A stretch of DNA of 64,000 nt from Ignavibacteriales bacterium (GTDB taxonomy: Bacteria; Bacteroidota; Ignavibacteria; Ignavibacteriales; Melioribacteraceae), in contig JAPLFF010000003.1 in NCBI GenBank assembly GCA_026390775.1, positions 310,001 to 374,000 of the forward strand, read 5' to 3'. The position numbers were made by a program, and so were the translations under genes. This document shows, piece after piece, positions 39,054 to 43,448 of the stretch. The stretch's first letter is position 1. Each line of letters opens with the position of its first letter. Below the pieces are notes generated by a model, which was not told the DNA's origin, did no database searches, and saw only the letters and a list, made by a program, of their open reading frames with translations.

Positions 39054-39944
39054 ATGAAAAAAATATTTGTTGTTTTTTGCATAATTACCTTTCTTCCTGC
39101 TTTTCTTGTTGCTCAGGAACTTGATGCAACTGTTATCGTGAAGGATGAACAACTTGATATTTCTTCGCGTGAACGAGTGAACAATTTTAAGGATCAAATC
39201 CAGGACTATCTTAATAACACAAAATATACCCGCAAAGCATGGGAAGGTGAAAAGATCAAATGTACATTCAATATTTTTTTTAACGGATCGAGCGATGAAG
39301 TAAGTTATTCAGCGCAATTAGTTGTATCCAGCCAAAGACCAATCGAAGGAACTCAACTCAATTCATTAACGATGAGCATTCTCGATAATTCATGGTCATT
39401 CAAGTATCAGAAGAATCAAGCAATGTATTTTAATCAAACAGATTTTGATCCGCTTACCAGTCTTCTCGATTTTTATGCATACATAATAATTGGATTCGAT
39501 TTTGATTCTTATTACAAATTAGGCGGTACTGAATATTTTCAAAAAGCACTAGACATAGCAGCTAAAGGAGGCAGCAGTTCACCTAAGGGCTGGCAATATG
39601 AAAGCACTGCATATAATAGAAGAGCATTGGTTGATAATTTATTAAATGCAAAGTATCAGCAATTCCGCCAAGATTATTTTGATTACCACTATAACGGACT
39701 CGATCTTTTCCATACCGAAGACCAAAAACAAAGTGCATACAATAATATTGTGAAGTTGATTAATAATTTAGAAAAGATGAGAGATCAGATAGATACGAGA
39801 AGTGTTTTGATGAAAATATTTTTTGATGCTAAGGCGGGTGAGTTTATAGAATATTTAAAAAACTATCCTGATAAATCAATTTTTAATACTCTAAAAAAAC
39901 TTGATCCGCCACATATTTCAAAATATGATGAAGCGATGAAGTAG
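39054..39944 (+). CDS. DUF4835 family protein (PorD-like, type IX secretion associated)
   Basis: A 296-residue exported protein (signal peptide ending LVAQ). It matches the DUF4835 layout: an N-terminal strand domain (ELDATVIVKDEQLD), a middle with KCTFNIFFNG and SSQRPIEGTQLNS, then LLDFYAYIIIGFDFDSYYKLGG, KGWQYESTAYNRRALVDNLL and YFDYHYNGLDLF. The family is found across Bacteroidota, and PorD was linked to gliding/type IX secretion (established only in part). It is divergent from the PorV-like gene and ends one base before the convergent acyltransferase gene. Confidence 0.8.
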   Translation: MKKIFVVFCIITFLPAFLVAQELDATVIVKDEQLDISSRERVNNFKDQIQDYLNNTKYTRKAWEGEKIKCTFNIFFNGSSDEVSYSAQLVVSSQRPIEGTQLNSLTMSILDNSWSFKYQKNQAMYFNQTDFDPLTSLLDFYAYIIIGFDFDSYYKLGGTEYFQKALDIAAKGGSSSPKGWQYESTAYNRRALVDNLLNAKYQQFRQDYFDYHYNGLDLFHTEDQKQSAYNNIVKLINNLEKMRDQIDTRSVLMKIFFDAKAGEFIEYLKNYPDKSIFNTLKKLDPPHISKYDEAMK

Positions 39945-41066
39945 TTAAATACCAATTTCATAAACTCGGTATTTTTTATAAATCTCACCATTCATTACCT
40001 GAGCACCGCGGTTCATCATATCGTTATCTTCTAATATCCAGCTTGCTTCACCAAGAAAAATTCCGTTTTGTGCAGCACGGTTAACTATCTCCCAATAAAA
40101 TACTGCATCAAGTCCGCGCTTTTGGTATTCAGGAATTATTCCAAGTGTTAGAATTCTTGACCACGTCATTTTTTTCTTTTGTGTATAAAGTTTTAAGAAC
40201 CCAAATGGGAAAAGTTTTCCGTTCATAGATTTAAAGATTTGATTGTAATCCAACATAACCAAAGCAAAACCGGCAAGTTTATTATCAATCTCTCCAAATA
40301 AAAGAAGAGAAGGTTCAACAAGCGGTTTTAAATCTTTTGCCATAGCATCAACTTCTTCTTCTGTGAATGGAACAAAACCCCAGTTCGGTGCCCAAGCTTT
40401 ATTATAGATATATTTAATTTTTTCTACTTCTTTCTTGTACTCTTTCATGTTAATTGGATAAACTTTTATTCCGGAACGTTTTTGTGCAATCTCAGCAACA
40501 CGTTTTAGTTTATCAGAAGAGAGAACTTTTTTGCTCTCTAGTTTGTATGCATAAAGATCTTTTGCTTTTTTGAATCCGTAATTATCACAAAGAGCTAAAT
40601 AGTATTTCGGATTGTAAGTCATCAGTAAACGCGGTTCGTCGTCGAATCCATCAAGTAACATAGCGTACTCATCGTTTGAAGAAGGATTTGCCGGTCCGCG
40701 CATTGCATCGCATCCTTTGGATCTTAACCATTCTTTTGCAGTTTCAAAAAGTTTGTTCGCAACTTCTTGATCATCTATACATTCAAAAAATCCGAAGAAT
40801 CCTACTTTATCATTATGATATTTATTGTGAAGATCATTTTTTATTGCAGCAATTCTCCCGACAAGCTCACCGTTTCTTTCGGCTAAGTACATCTCCATTG
40901 CGGCATGTTTGAAGAATGGATTTTTATTCTTATCAAGAATTTTTTTCTTATCGAAGATTAAAGGCGGGACCCAATGAGGATAATCTTTGTAGATTTTCCA
41001 TGCGAATTTTATGAATGTATCAACGTCCTTTTTAATGCGGACGGTTCTAATATTTATTTGTGACAT
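39945..41066 (-). CDS. GNAT-like acyltransferase, candidate bacterial ceramide synthase
   Basis: A 373-residue cytosolic protein of GNAT-like fold. The N-terminal part has WKIYKDYPHWVPPLIFDKKK and MYLAERNGELVGRIAAIKND. A middle section has MRGPANPSSNDEYAMLLDGF, and the C-terminal acetyl-transferase-like module has ILTLGIIPEYQKRGLDAVFY, the acyl-CoA binding region. Such proteins are often beside serine palmitoyltransferase in Bacteroidota, and the Caulobacter ceramide synthase is a GNAT-type protein. It follows the palmitoyltransferase gene on the same strand here. Assignment as ceramide synthase is inference from context; a plain N-acyltransferase is the safe call. Confidence 0.65.
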   Translation of the reverse strand: MSQINIRTVRIKKDVDTFIKFAWKIYKDYPHWVPPLIFDKKKILDKNKNPFFKHAAMEMYLAERNGELVGRIAAIKNDLHNKYHNDKVGFFGFFECIDDQEVANKLFETAKEWLRSKGCDAMRGPANPSSNDEYAMLLDGFDDEPRLLMTYNPKYYLALCDNYGFKKAKDLYAYKLESKKVLSSDKLKRVAEIAQKRSGIKVYPINMKEYKKEVEKIKYIYNKAWAPNWGFVPFTEEEVDAMAKDLKPLVEPSLLLFGEIDNKLAGFALVMLDYNQIFKSMNGKLFPFGFLKLYTQKKKMTWSRILTLGIIPEYQKRGLDAVFYWEIVNRAAQNGIFLGEASWILEDNDMMNRGAQVMNGEIYKKYRVYEIGI

Positions 41067-41088
41067 CGAAATTCCATATCTAATAAAT

Positions 41089-41136
41089 AAGGCTGCTGAG
41101 ATTTTTGTTCTAGATATTAAATCACAAAGCAGCCTT
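41089..41136 (-). other. Nine-pair hairpin between the palmitoyltransferase and acyltransferase genes
   Basis: AAGGCTGCT (41089-41097) pairs perfectly with AGCAGCCTT (41128-41136) around a 30-base loop. On the minus strand TTATTTATTAG follows, which is too poor in T for a sure terminator. It may be an attenuator or a processing site separating the two genes. Confidence 0.5.
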
Positions 41137-41147
41137 TCAAAGATTTT

Positions 41148-42341
41148 TTAGATTAAGCCGATTTCTTTACCAATTTTTTTGAATGTGTTAATTATAAAAT
41201 CTAAATGTTCATCTTCATGAGTTGACATATAGCTCGTTCTCATCATCTGTCGTCCTTGAGGAACACCAGGAGAAATAAATACATTTACGAAAACACCGGC
41301 ATCATAAAGTTTACGCCACATTGCAAAAGCTAATTCATCATTTCCAACAATAACAGGAACGATAGCTGTTCTCCCATCAATTATCTTAAAGCCGGCTTCG
41401 GTTAATTCTTTTCTTACTTTGTTTGCATTATTAATCAACTTTGGAACTCTCCAAGGTTCTTTTTTCAAAATATCTAAAGCAGCAAGAGCAGCAGCAACAG
41501 CCGCTGGAGTTGGAGATGCACTGAATATTAATGCTGCTGAATGATGCTTGAGATAATTAATAACTCTTTCTTTACCGGCTACAAATCCGCCGAGTGATGC
41601 AAATGTTTTACTGAAAGTTCCCATTGTTAGATCAACCTCATTTTCCAGATTGAATTCGCTTGCTGTTCCTCTTCCACCTTTACCGATTACACCGACAGCA
41701 TGAGCATCGTCTATTAATGTTTTTGCATTGTATTTCTTAGCCAAAGCTACAAGCTTTTCTAGATTAACAATTTCTCCTCCCGTACTAAAGACACCATCGC
41801 TAACAATTAGCTTACCTGCATCTATTGGTAATTTCTGTAAAACTCTTTCGAGGTCATCCATATCGTTATGTTTGTAACGTTCAAGATTTGCAGTAATTCC
41901 TTTAGCCATCATCTGTCCGGCAACAATACAAGCATGATTATCTTTATCGGAAACAACGTACTCATCTCTCCCTTGAACCAAAGTTGGAATTATTCCTTGA
42001 GCGGTTTGATATCCAGTAGAAAATAGAAGGACTGCTTCAGAACCAAAAAATTCTGCAAGTTTTTTTTCTAGCTCTATGTGTAGATCTAAAGTTCCTGTAA
42101 GATAACGGGAACCTGAACAACCGGTTCCATATTTTTCAACAGCTTTAATAGCAGCTTCTTTAACCAATGGATGAGCAGTGAGTCCTAAATAATTATTTGA
42201 CCCCGCCATTACCATTTTTTTGCCTTCGATTTGAACAACTGGACCTTCGTTCTCTTCTATGGCGCGGAAATATGGATACAACCCCAATGCTTTGACATCG
42301 TCTGCACGCGTGAAATCATAACATTTTTGAAATAGGTCCAA
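41148..42341 (-). CDS. spt: Serine palmitoyltransferase-like alpha-oxoamine synthase
   Basis: A 397-residue PLP enzyme of the KBL/BioF/SPT family. The PLP lysine is Lys245 in [12 protein letters not shown]; His136 (DKDNHACIV) stacks on the cofactor; DDAHAVG (211-217) holds the ring-binding Asp and His. [32 protein letters not shown] and [17 protein letters not shown] are typical. The start [20 protein letters not shown] and the [13 protein letters not shown] region resemble Bacteroidota serine palmitoyltransferases more than BioF as I recall them. It condenses an amino acid, probably serine, with an acyl-CoA to 3-ketosphinganine. No bio genes are nearby, and the acyltransferase and SDR neighbours support sphingolipid synthesis. 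Confidence 0.8.
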
Positions 42342-42461
42342 AATTCCTCCGGATTATTTTTCTTGTATTAAATTTTCTATTTTTAGATTGCTTGAAATTC
42401 GAGTAAATGATTTTACGAGCGTCAATATAATGAAATTATATTTATAATTAATAAAACGTAT

Positions 42462-43448
42462 ATGAAAAATATCTCTGTTGTAACCGGTGCTTCAGGTTTC
42501 GTAGGCAGTCACCTTGTTGATAAACTATTAGCTGAAGGTCATCAAGTTAAGTGTATCTTAAGAAAAACAAGCTCTAAGCGCTGGTTAGAAAATAAACCTG
42601 TAGAAATTATTGATACCGGGTTATTCGATAAAGATACTCTTAAAAAAATCCTCAAAGATGCTGATTATCTTTTTCATGTGGCAGGAGTAGTAAAAGCAAA
42701 AAATAAAGAAGATTACTTTAAGGGGAATGTTGAAACAACACAAAATCTTTTGGATATACTTTCTGAAGTTAATCCAAATATAAAACGTGTTGTTATTGTA
42801 AGCAGTCAAACTGCATGCGGTCCTTCGCTTGATGGGAGACCTGTTACAGAAGAAACAAAAGAGCATCCCATTACAACTTACGGAAGAAGTAAGTATGCCC
42901 AGGAACAATTAGCAAAAAAGTATATGGATAAACTTCCGATTACTATTATTCGTCCGCCTGCTATTTATGGTCAGCGCGATACCGAGATCTATCTTTTTTT
43001 CAAAACTTATAAACAAGGATTAATGGGTCTAATCGGTTTTGATAAAAAACAAGTTAGTATTGTTCATGTTGAAGATTTGGTAAACGGAATTTATTTGGCG
43101 GCTACATCTAAGAAATCAATTGGACAAACATATTTTATTGGAAGTGAACAATATTACAATTGGAAAGAAATCGGTGAAGTTTGTCATAAAGCATTCGGGA
43201 AGAAAGCTTTCACAATAAAAATTCCTCACTTTATTGTTTACACTGTAGCGGCAATTGCACAATTTTTTGCACTCTTCAGTTCGAAGGCTGCAACATTTAA
43301 TTTAGAAAAAGCACGTGATTTTGTTCAGAGCGCTTGGACGTGTGATGTTTCAAAAGCAGTTGATGATTTAGGATTTCGTCAGAATGTTTCTTTGGAAGAT
43401 GGAATGAAGCGGACAATTGATTGGTACAAAGAAATGAAATGGCTATAA
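42462..43448 (+). CDS. NAD-dependent epimerase/dehydratase-type SDR, candidate ceramide pathway reductase (CerR-like)
   Basis: A 328-residue extended SDR. The nucleotide motif is VTGASGFVGSHLVDKLL, FHVAGVVKAKNKEDYFKGNV lies where NAD(P) contacts occur, and SSQTACGPS, Tyr140 and Lys144 (TYGRSKYAQEQ) form the catalytic set. The proline-rich RPPAIYGQRD and a C-terminal hydrophobic segment (FIVYTVAAIAQFFALF) follow. In Caulobacter an epimerase-like SDR (CerR) reduces the ketone of N-acyl 3-ketosphinganine. This gene is divergent from the palmitoyltransferase gene (120-base gap), so the same role is plausible. The exact reaction is not proven by sequence. Confidence 0.75.
   Translation: MKNISVVTGASGFVGSHLVDKLLAEGHQVKCILRKTSSKRWLENKPVEIIDTGLFDKDTLKKILKDADYLFHVAGVVKAKNKEDYFKGNVETTQNLLDILSEVNPNIKRVVIVSSQTACGPSLDGRPVTEETKEHPITTYGRSKYAQEQLAKKYMDKLPITIIRPPAIYGQRDTEIYLFFKTYKQGLMGLIGFDKKQVSIVHVEDLVNGIYLAATSKKSIGQTYFIGSEQYYNWKEIGEVCHKAFGKKAFTIKIPHFIVYTVAAIAQFFALFSSKAATFNLEKARDFVQSAWTCDVSKAVDDLGFRQNVSLEDGMKRTIDWYKEMKWL

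What the first reader, a model, noticed from the sequence alone, without database searches (positions are those of the whole stretch)
39945..43448. Probable ceramide/sphingolipid biosynthesis cluster
A serine-palmitoyltransferase-like enzyme, a GNAT-like acyltransferase and an SDR of epimerase type lie together. These are the three activities of the bacterial ceramide pathway worked out in Caulobacter (Spt, bCerS, CerR). Sphingolipids are well known in Bacteroidota but, as far as I know, little described for Ignavibacteria.
Basis: partly seen in the sequence, partly recalled or inferred. Interest (0 to 1): 0.65.

Follow-up and report, generated by a model that had tools for sequence, protein, structure and literature searches.

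The report
Three-gene bacterial ceramide synthesis cluster
This is an ordinary-looking set of three genes for making ceramide, the backbone of sphingolipids, found in nearly all sampled members of one class of environmental bacteria; in some relatives the first two enzymes are joined into one protein, which bears on a dispute about the order of the steps.

Summary
The PLP enzyme falls in the SPT clade; KBL, BioF and the sulfonolipid enzyme CFAT fall outside, and it has Ala where CFAT has Lys. The GNAT has one match in each of 10 sphingomonad genomes, and the SDR is the clear best match in the window's genome to a sphingomonad SDR beside spt. In 149 class genomes, SPT and GNAT are adjacent and co-directional in at least 93; the SDR is divergent beside SPT in 69. 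Most likely this is a complete ceramide backbone pathway. Genetic potential in 'Ignavibacter' is already in print (PMC10667739). The newer point lies in relatives: in two families, 17 of 18 genomes carry SPT and GNAT in one open frame with a 19-38 residue linker. Three literature searches showed no report of this. It favours acylation before reduction, the disputed order.

The parts
41148..42341 (-). Serine palmitoyltransferase (SPT): PLP-dependent alpha-oxoamine synthase, predicted to make 3-ketosphinganine; PLP lysine K245, A275 at the position that is Lys in cysteate acyltransferases
39945..41066 (-). Tandem-GNAT N-acyltransferase, predicted bacterial ceramide synthase (bCerS/CerS), 81 bp downstream of SPT on the same strand
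42462..43448 (+). Extended short-chain dehydrogenase, predicted 3-keto(dihydro)ceramide reductase (CerR), divergent from SPT; TGASGFVGSH and YGRSK motifs, no signal peptide apparent by eye
42342..42461 (.). 120-bp divergent intergenic region; holds a GGAGG ribosome-binding site 5 nt before the TTG start of SPT
   Evidence: promoter and terminator matches not above shuffles

Best explanation
The three genes encode a complete bacterial ceramide backbone pathway. SPT condenses L-serine with a long acyl thioester to 3-ketosphinganine. The tandem GNAT adds the second acyl chain to its amino group. The SDR reduces the 3-keto group to give dihydroceramide. Shown here: gene families, clade membership, conserved linkage, and (in relatives) physical fusion of the first two enzymes. 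Inferred: substrates, products, the step order, and that the lipid is made.
For: SPT clade of 82 rows (SH-aLRT 95) holds the window, PDB 3a2b and sphingomonad SPT; KBL, BioF, PDB 7poa and CFAT rows are outside. Ala at the SPT/SulA-diagnostic site in 82 of 82 SPT-clade rows, the window included; Lys in 9 of 9 CFAT-clade rows, one of which hits PDB 28eh best; diagnostic from PMC9304779 (passages). Linkage in 149 genomes and in 21 of 30 SPT-bearing genomes of other families. SPT in 142 of 149. GNAT: one match in each of 10 sphingomonad genomes, E 1e-52 to 1e-64; for 7 of 7 sphingomonad GNATs the best of 21 paralogs ranks 50th or lower of 75. A sphingomonad SDR beside spt hits the window SDR at 8.6e-30, next best 6e-4. 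SPT-GNAT fusion read in 17 of 17 loci fetched, with the seven checked SPT residues kept.
Against: The SPT scores below NCBIfam's cut-off (480 vs 640 bits); no class genome of 149 passes it. Ala at the diagnostic site also occurs in three rows outside the SPT clade (L236, L248, L251), so it excludes CFAT but does not prove SPT. Caulobacter's own bCerS and CerR were not compared; sphingomonad genes stand in for them. In the GNAT tree the sphingomonad proteins do not join the window's clade to the exclusion of a 13-row paralog clade (support 91/42). In G388 the SPT-adjacent SDR was only second best. The best NCBIfam label of the SDR is HpnA, far below cut-off. Genes are unlinked in families such as f6 and f7. 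G310 (98% complete) has GNAT and SDR but only a 3e-74 match to the SPT model; G079 has the GNAT but no SPT match. No lipid data.
Confidence: 0.87

Rival explanations
1. Sulfonolipid (capnine-type) pathway: the PLP enzyme is a cysteate-C-fatty acyltransferase (SulA/CFAT), with GNAT and SDR finishing a sulfonolipid.
For: Same enzyme logic; nine CFAT-clade rows came from genomes of this phylum.
Against: Window enzyme has Ala275, not Lys, at the diagnostic site and lies in the SPT clade, apart from the CFAT clade.
Confidence: 0.03
2. The PLP enzyme makes 1-deoxysphingoid bases or another amino-acid variant (alanine, lysine), so the product is a deoxy- or modified ceramide.
For: PMC11334938 (section 20) notes that Spt can take alanine and hypothesises others such as lysine; the window's branch is distinct from the solved SPT.
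Against: The seven checked residues match SPT; nothing points to a specific alternative.
Confidence: 0.07
3. SPT plus GNAT make the acylated keto-base, but the divergent SDR serves another pathway and a different SDR (as BT_0972 in Bacteroides) is the reductase.
For: The SDR is within 500 bp of SPT in only 69 of 149 genomes; BT_0972 is not clustered with SPT in B. thetaiotaomicron (PMC9278070, passages); G160 has SPT and GNAT but no SDR match at 1e-62.
Against: Reciprocal best match to a sphingomonad SDR beside spt; divergent in all 69 close cases.
Confidence: 0.1

Closest known systems
Caulobacter crescentus spt / cerS (CC_1154, bCerS) / cerR (CC_1164)
   Same: Same three activities; cerR and cerS are described from one genomic region (PMC11324152, passages).
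   Different: Here three genes with an 81-bp SPT-GNAT gap and a divergent SDR; no ACP/ACS gene among the neighbours looked at. The SDR shows no signal peptide by eye, while Caulobacter CerR is reported periplasmic (PMC11087976, passages). Sequences not compared.
Sphingomonad spt region (L091-L170)
   Same: An SDR relative just upstream of spt in 46 of 80 loci, a GNAT relative in 32 of 80, mostly 3-10 kb downstream; many loci are cut by contig ends or the 10-kb flank.
   Different: GNAT 31-34% and spt-near SDR 28-32% identical to the window's; SDR co-directional with spt, not divergent.
Bacteroidota SPT-GNAT-SDR loci (L259, L260, L261, L267)
   Same: SPT followed directly by GNAT; SPT over the NCBIfam cut-off.
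   Different: SDR follows the GNAT on the same strand and is 31-33% identical to the window's.
Alistipes SulA / CFAT (PDB 28eh)
   Same: Same PLP fold family.
   Different: Lys at the diagnostic position, separate clade.

Membership tests
Serine palmitoyltransferase | Groups with characterised SPT, not KBL/BioF/CFAT | tested here: met
   SPT clade 82 of 105 rows, SH-aLRT 95 (quick method)
Serine palmitoyltransferase | PLP Lys, His stack, Asp/His pair, Arg, and Ala (not Lys) at the SulA K281 site | tested here: met
   pattern NHDHKAR in the window; Ala also in 3 rows outside the clade
Serine palmitoyltransferase | Score over the NCBIfam SerpalmtaseCFB cut-off (a naming threshold) | tested here: not met
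   480 of 640 bits; met by 7 of 48 other genomes of the phylum
Serine palmitoyltransferase | Condenses serine with long acyl thioester | not testable with these tools
   needs an assay
Bacterial ceramide synthase (bCerS) | Relative of the spt-region GNAT of sphingomonads, nearer to it than other GNAT paralogs are | tested here: met
   single match in 10 of 10 genomes, within 10 kb of spt in 6; paralogs score lower in 7 of 7 queries
Bacterial ceramide synthase (bCerS) | Strict orthology by tree, and direct comparison with Caulobacter CC_1154 | tested here: inconclusive
   deep fork weakly supported (91/42); the Caulobacter protein was not fetched
Bacterial ceramide synthase (bCerS) | Structural match to a solved bCerS | tested here: inconclusive
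   none found by sequence (none; best E 0.0012, short GNAT); tandem GNAT fold, Z 25.3 to 7q3a, about 16 to N-myristoyltransferases
Ceramide reductase (CerR) | Reciprocal best match with an spt-linked SDR | tested here: met
   best match within 2.6 kb of spt in 7 of 10 genomes, within 17 kb in 2, second best in 1
Ceramide reductase (CerR) | Periplasmic location as in Caulobacter | tested here: inconclusive
   Rossmann motif at the N-terminus, one hydrophobic stretch about 252-276; no signal-peptide program or assay was run
CFAT/SulA | Lys at the diagnostic site | tested here: not met
   Ala275
KBL / BioF | Groups with E. coli Kbl or BioF | tested here: not met

The most novel reading that the evidence does not exclude
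In two families of the class, nature has fused SPT to the ceramide synthase in one event, giving a bifunctional enzyme that hands 3-ketosphinganine straight to N-acylation. This makes acylate-first, reduce-last the native order in this lineage, the window's unfused pair included.
Probability: 0.5. Interest if true: 0.65.

Novelty: new member of a known kind. Interest (0 to 1): 0.45.

Why it matters
It makes the gene set for sphingolipid synthesis a near-universal trait of this environmental class (SPT in 142 of 149 genomes) rather than a rarity. It links to green sulfur bacteria, where an aminoglycosphingolipid was reported in Chlorobium limicola (Jensen 1991, as cited in PMC11762602). The literature openly disagrees on whether bacteria reduce or acylate the keto-base first (PMC11087976 and PMC11324152, passages). 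A natural SPT-ceramide synthase fusion gives a single protein on which that can be tested directly.

Tried and rejected
Sulfonolipid reading: rejected by residue and clade. KBL/BioF reading: rejected by clade. Neighbours as a larger lipid operon: among 29 loci compared with the window, only the three core genes (and an antisense shadow frame) recur widely. A branched-chain aminotransferase follows the GNAT in 7 of the 29 but not in the window. Promoter and terminator scan: no excess over shuffles. AlphaFold2 of the fusion: mean pLDDT 59.3 with 11 sequences, uninformative. Literature searches for a bacterial SPT-ceramide synthase fusion listed no report, though one search listed only 10 of 1,295 papers; the key paper, Stankeviciute 2022, is not held, so a mention there cannot be excluded.

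Co-loss was weaker than I first wrote. G097 and G362, both listed 100% complete, lack all three genes only at the thresholds used: G097 has a GNAT match at 8.8e-61, and both have about 1e-98 to 1e-100 matches to the SPT model, in the range of KBL-type rows but not examined. The co-absence test (Fisher p 2e-7 for SPT and GNAT) is further weakened by incomplete assemblies and kinship. The 30 residues checked (one of the 31 listed was a repeat) were picked as conserved in an alignment that already held sphingomonads, so they are no independent test: of the two sphingomonad rows printed, L127 has 30 of 30 and L091 has 28.

Full report
What is there. One search shows three intact ORFs filling 39945-43448 of the window: a 373-aa GNAT protein and a 397-aa PLP enzyme on the minus strand, 81 bp apart with the PLP gene first, and a 328-aa SDR on the plus strand, with 120 bp between the PLP gene and the SDR. 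Pfam and NCBIfam call them acetyltransferase, aminotransferase I/II (best model SerpalmtaseCFB, 480 bits, cut-off 640) and NAD-dependent epimerase/dehydratase. Left of the cluster lies PorD of the type IX secretion system (39054-39944), over its cut-off. The window lies in a 3.0-Mb genome, G000; its only other match to the SPT model at E 0.001 is a 28-bit one.

Is the PLP enzyme an SPT? The closest solved chain is 3a2b (E 1.6e-109), the Sphingobacterium multivorum SPT (so named in PMC9304779). In a 105-row tree (quick IQ-TREE) an 82-row SPT clade (SH-aLRT 95) holds the window, 3a2b, eight sphingomonad SPT and seven Bacteroidota SPT that pass the NCBIfam cut-off. E. coli Kbl and BioF, PDB 7poa and nine CFAT-type rows lie outside; the tool warns that a few long rows have unsure places. 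PMC9304779 (passages) gives Lys281 of SulA against Ala in Spt as the mark that separates sulfonolipid from sphingolipid enzymes. At that column the window has Ala275, all 82 SPT-clade rows have Ala, and all nine CFAT-clade rows have Lys. Three rows outside the SPT clade (L236, L248, L251) also have Ala, so this excludes CFAT but is no proof of SPT. One CFAT-clade row hits the cysteate acyltransferase 28eh best.

Is the GNAT a ceramide synthase? At E 0.001 it has exactly one match in each of 10 sphingomonad genomes, 31-34% identical, E 1e-52 to 1e-64. It lies within 10 kb of spt in 6 of the 10, 20 kb in one, farther in two, and on another contig in one. In a GNAT tree (82 rows) a 54-row clade (99/95) holds the class, the green-sulfur-type rows and all but one of the SPT-adjacent proteins of the phylum; one paralog, L291, falls inside it, and one SPT-adjacent protein, L262, falls with paralogs. 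The sphingomonad rows sit outside this clade, and whether they or a 13-row paralog clade lie closer is not resolved (91/42). By plain similarity the answer is clearer: for 7 of 7 sphingomonad GNATs the best of 21 paralogs ranks 50th or lower of 75, behind nearly all SPT-linked and class rows. AlphaFold2 gives a confident tandem GNAT (pLDDT 94.7) matching 7q3a at Z 25.3 (rmsd 3.3, 304 aligned) and N-myristoyltransferases, which carry long acyl chains, at about Z 16. A fold shows no function. The PDB holds no close sequence relative (none; best E 0.0012).

Is the SDR the reductase? A sphingomonad SDR lying about 1 kb from spt, searched against the window's genome, finds the window SDR at 8.6e-30; the next match is at 6e-4. 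In reverse, the window SDR's best match lies within 2.6 kb of spt in 7 of 10 sphingomonad genomes and within 17 kb in two more; in G388 the adjacent SDR is second best. PMC11324152 (passages) names CC_1164 as dehydrogenase CerR and CC_1154 as N-acyltransferase CerS in Caulobacter. Their sequences were not compared here, so the sphingomonad genes are stand-ins.

How widespread is it? Of 149 class genomes, 142 have an SPT of this type (counted), 143 the GNAT at E 1e-85 and 143 the SDR at 1e-62. SPT and GNAT lie within 500 bp in 93, always same strand with GNAT downstream; 12 of these are fused, and five more fusions are missing from the count because one search's list was cut. The SDR lies within 500 bp of SPT in 69, always divergent. 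In some families (f6, f7) none are close. Against tight coupling: G310 (98% complete) has GNAT and SDR but only a 3e-74 match to the SPT model, and G160 has no SDR at the threshold. G097 and G362 (listed 100% complete) lack all three at the thresholds but keep weaker matches, such as a GNAT at 8.8e-61 in G097, so I do not rest on co-loss. Outside the class, 30 of 48 genomes of the phylum have such an SPT, and in 21 of these 30 the GNAT is within 500 bp. Five of six genomes with a chlorosome protein (of 51 searched), presumably green sulfur bacteria and kin, have SPT inside the same 45-row clade as the window, though unlinked to the GNAT. The sixth, G079, has the GNAT only. PMC11762602 (passages) cites an aminoglycosphingolipid from Chlorobium limicola.

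A natural fusion. In families f12 and f13, 17 of 18 genomes (the exception, G349, is 67% complete and has no SPT of this type) have SPT and GNAT in one open frame of about 800-950 codons, stop to stop. I read all 17 loci: no internal stop, a linker of 19-38 residues between the profile matches, SPT residues NHDHKAR complete in 17 of 17. SPT domains form one clade (17 rows, SH-aLRT 99), and so do the 11 GNAT domains put in the GNAT tree (100/98), which fits one fusion event. Fifteen of the 17 genomes have a second GNAT match. In Caulobacter, Spt and bCerS are cytoplasmic and CerR periplasmic; the step order is disputed (PMC11087976, passages; PMC11324152, passages). A fusion of steps one and two fits acylation before reduction. 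It does not prove it, since the fused partner could also act after reduction, and the window's own pair is unfused. The fusion model was too poor to use. Searches listed no report of such a fusion; one central paper is not held.

What is known. PMC10667739 (passages) states genetic potential in 'Ignavibacter' and correlates monoglycosyl ceramides with Ignavibacteriales. PMC11334938 (section 20) counts Spt-like proteins in MAGs of 38 phyla of the Black Sea. It repeats that the three genes are not close together in sphingolipid-producing Bacteroidota; the class here, and loci L259, L260, L261 and L267, are counter-examples at phylum level. So the window itself is a new member of a known kind; the fusion in its relatives is the part worth following.

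Noticed in passing
L071-L081, L253-L258 (families f12, f13 of the class): SPT and GNAT fused in one open frame with a 19-38 residue linker in 17 of 17 loci read; 15 of these 17 genomes also have a second GNAT match.
   Followed up: yes
L083, L084, L087, L088, L090, L269, L272: A branched-chain amino acid aminotransferase (named by NCBIfam in L083; the others by similarity) follows the GNAT on the same strand within about 0.5 kb in 7 of 29 loci, five families; it could supply iso-branched acyl chains to the sphingoid base.
   Followed up: partly
window 42339-42355 and SPT genes of the class and relatives: SPT starts with TTG behind a GGAGG site; TTG (37) or GTG (22) stands at the aligned start in 59 of 96 ORFs parsed, ATG in 2. 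A kept weak start codon may set enzyme level.
   Followed up: partly
G005, G010, G020, G087, G280, G079: Chlorosome-bearing genomes have an SPT close to the window's in 5 of 6; G079 keeps the GNAT without a detected SPT.
   Followed up: partly
L259, L260, L261, L267: Other families of the phylum carry SPT, GNAT and an SDR in a row on one strand, against the printed remark that these genes are not close together in sphingolipid-producing Bacteroidota.
   Followed up: partly
G219:C210, G254:C158, G179:C1:441694: Alpha-oxoamine synthase matches sit in open frames of 1113-1171 aa, so possibly fused to something else.
   Followed up: no
window 39054-39944: PorD of the type IX secretion system lies next to the cluster, over its NCBIfam cut-off; a relative is also present in loci L082 and L270.
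   Followed up: no
G070:C4:73010-74185 (L047): A second, divergent SPT-like gene (526 bits) in a genome that also has the linked one.
   Followed up: no
G097, G362: Two genomes listed 100% complete have no SPT, GNAT or SDR at the thresholds used, only weaker relatives: possible losses of the pathway.
   Followed up: no
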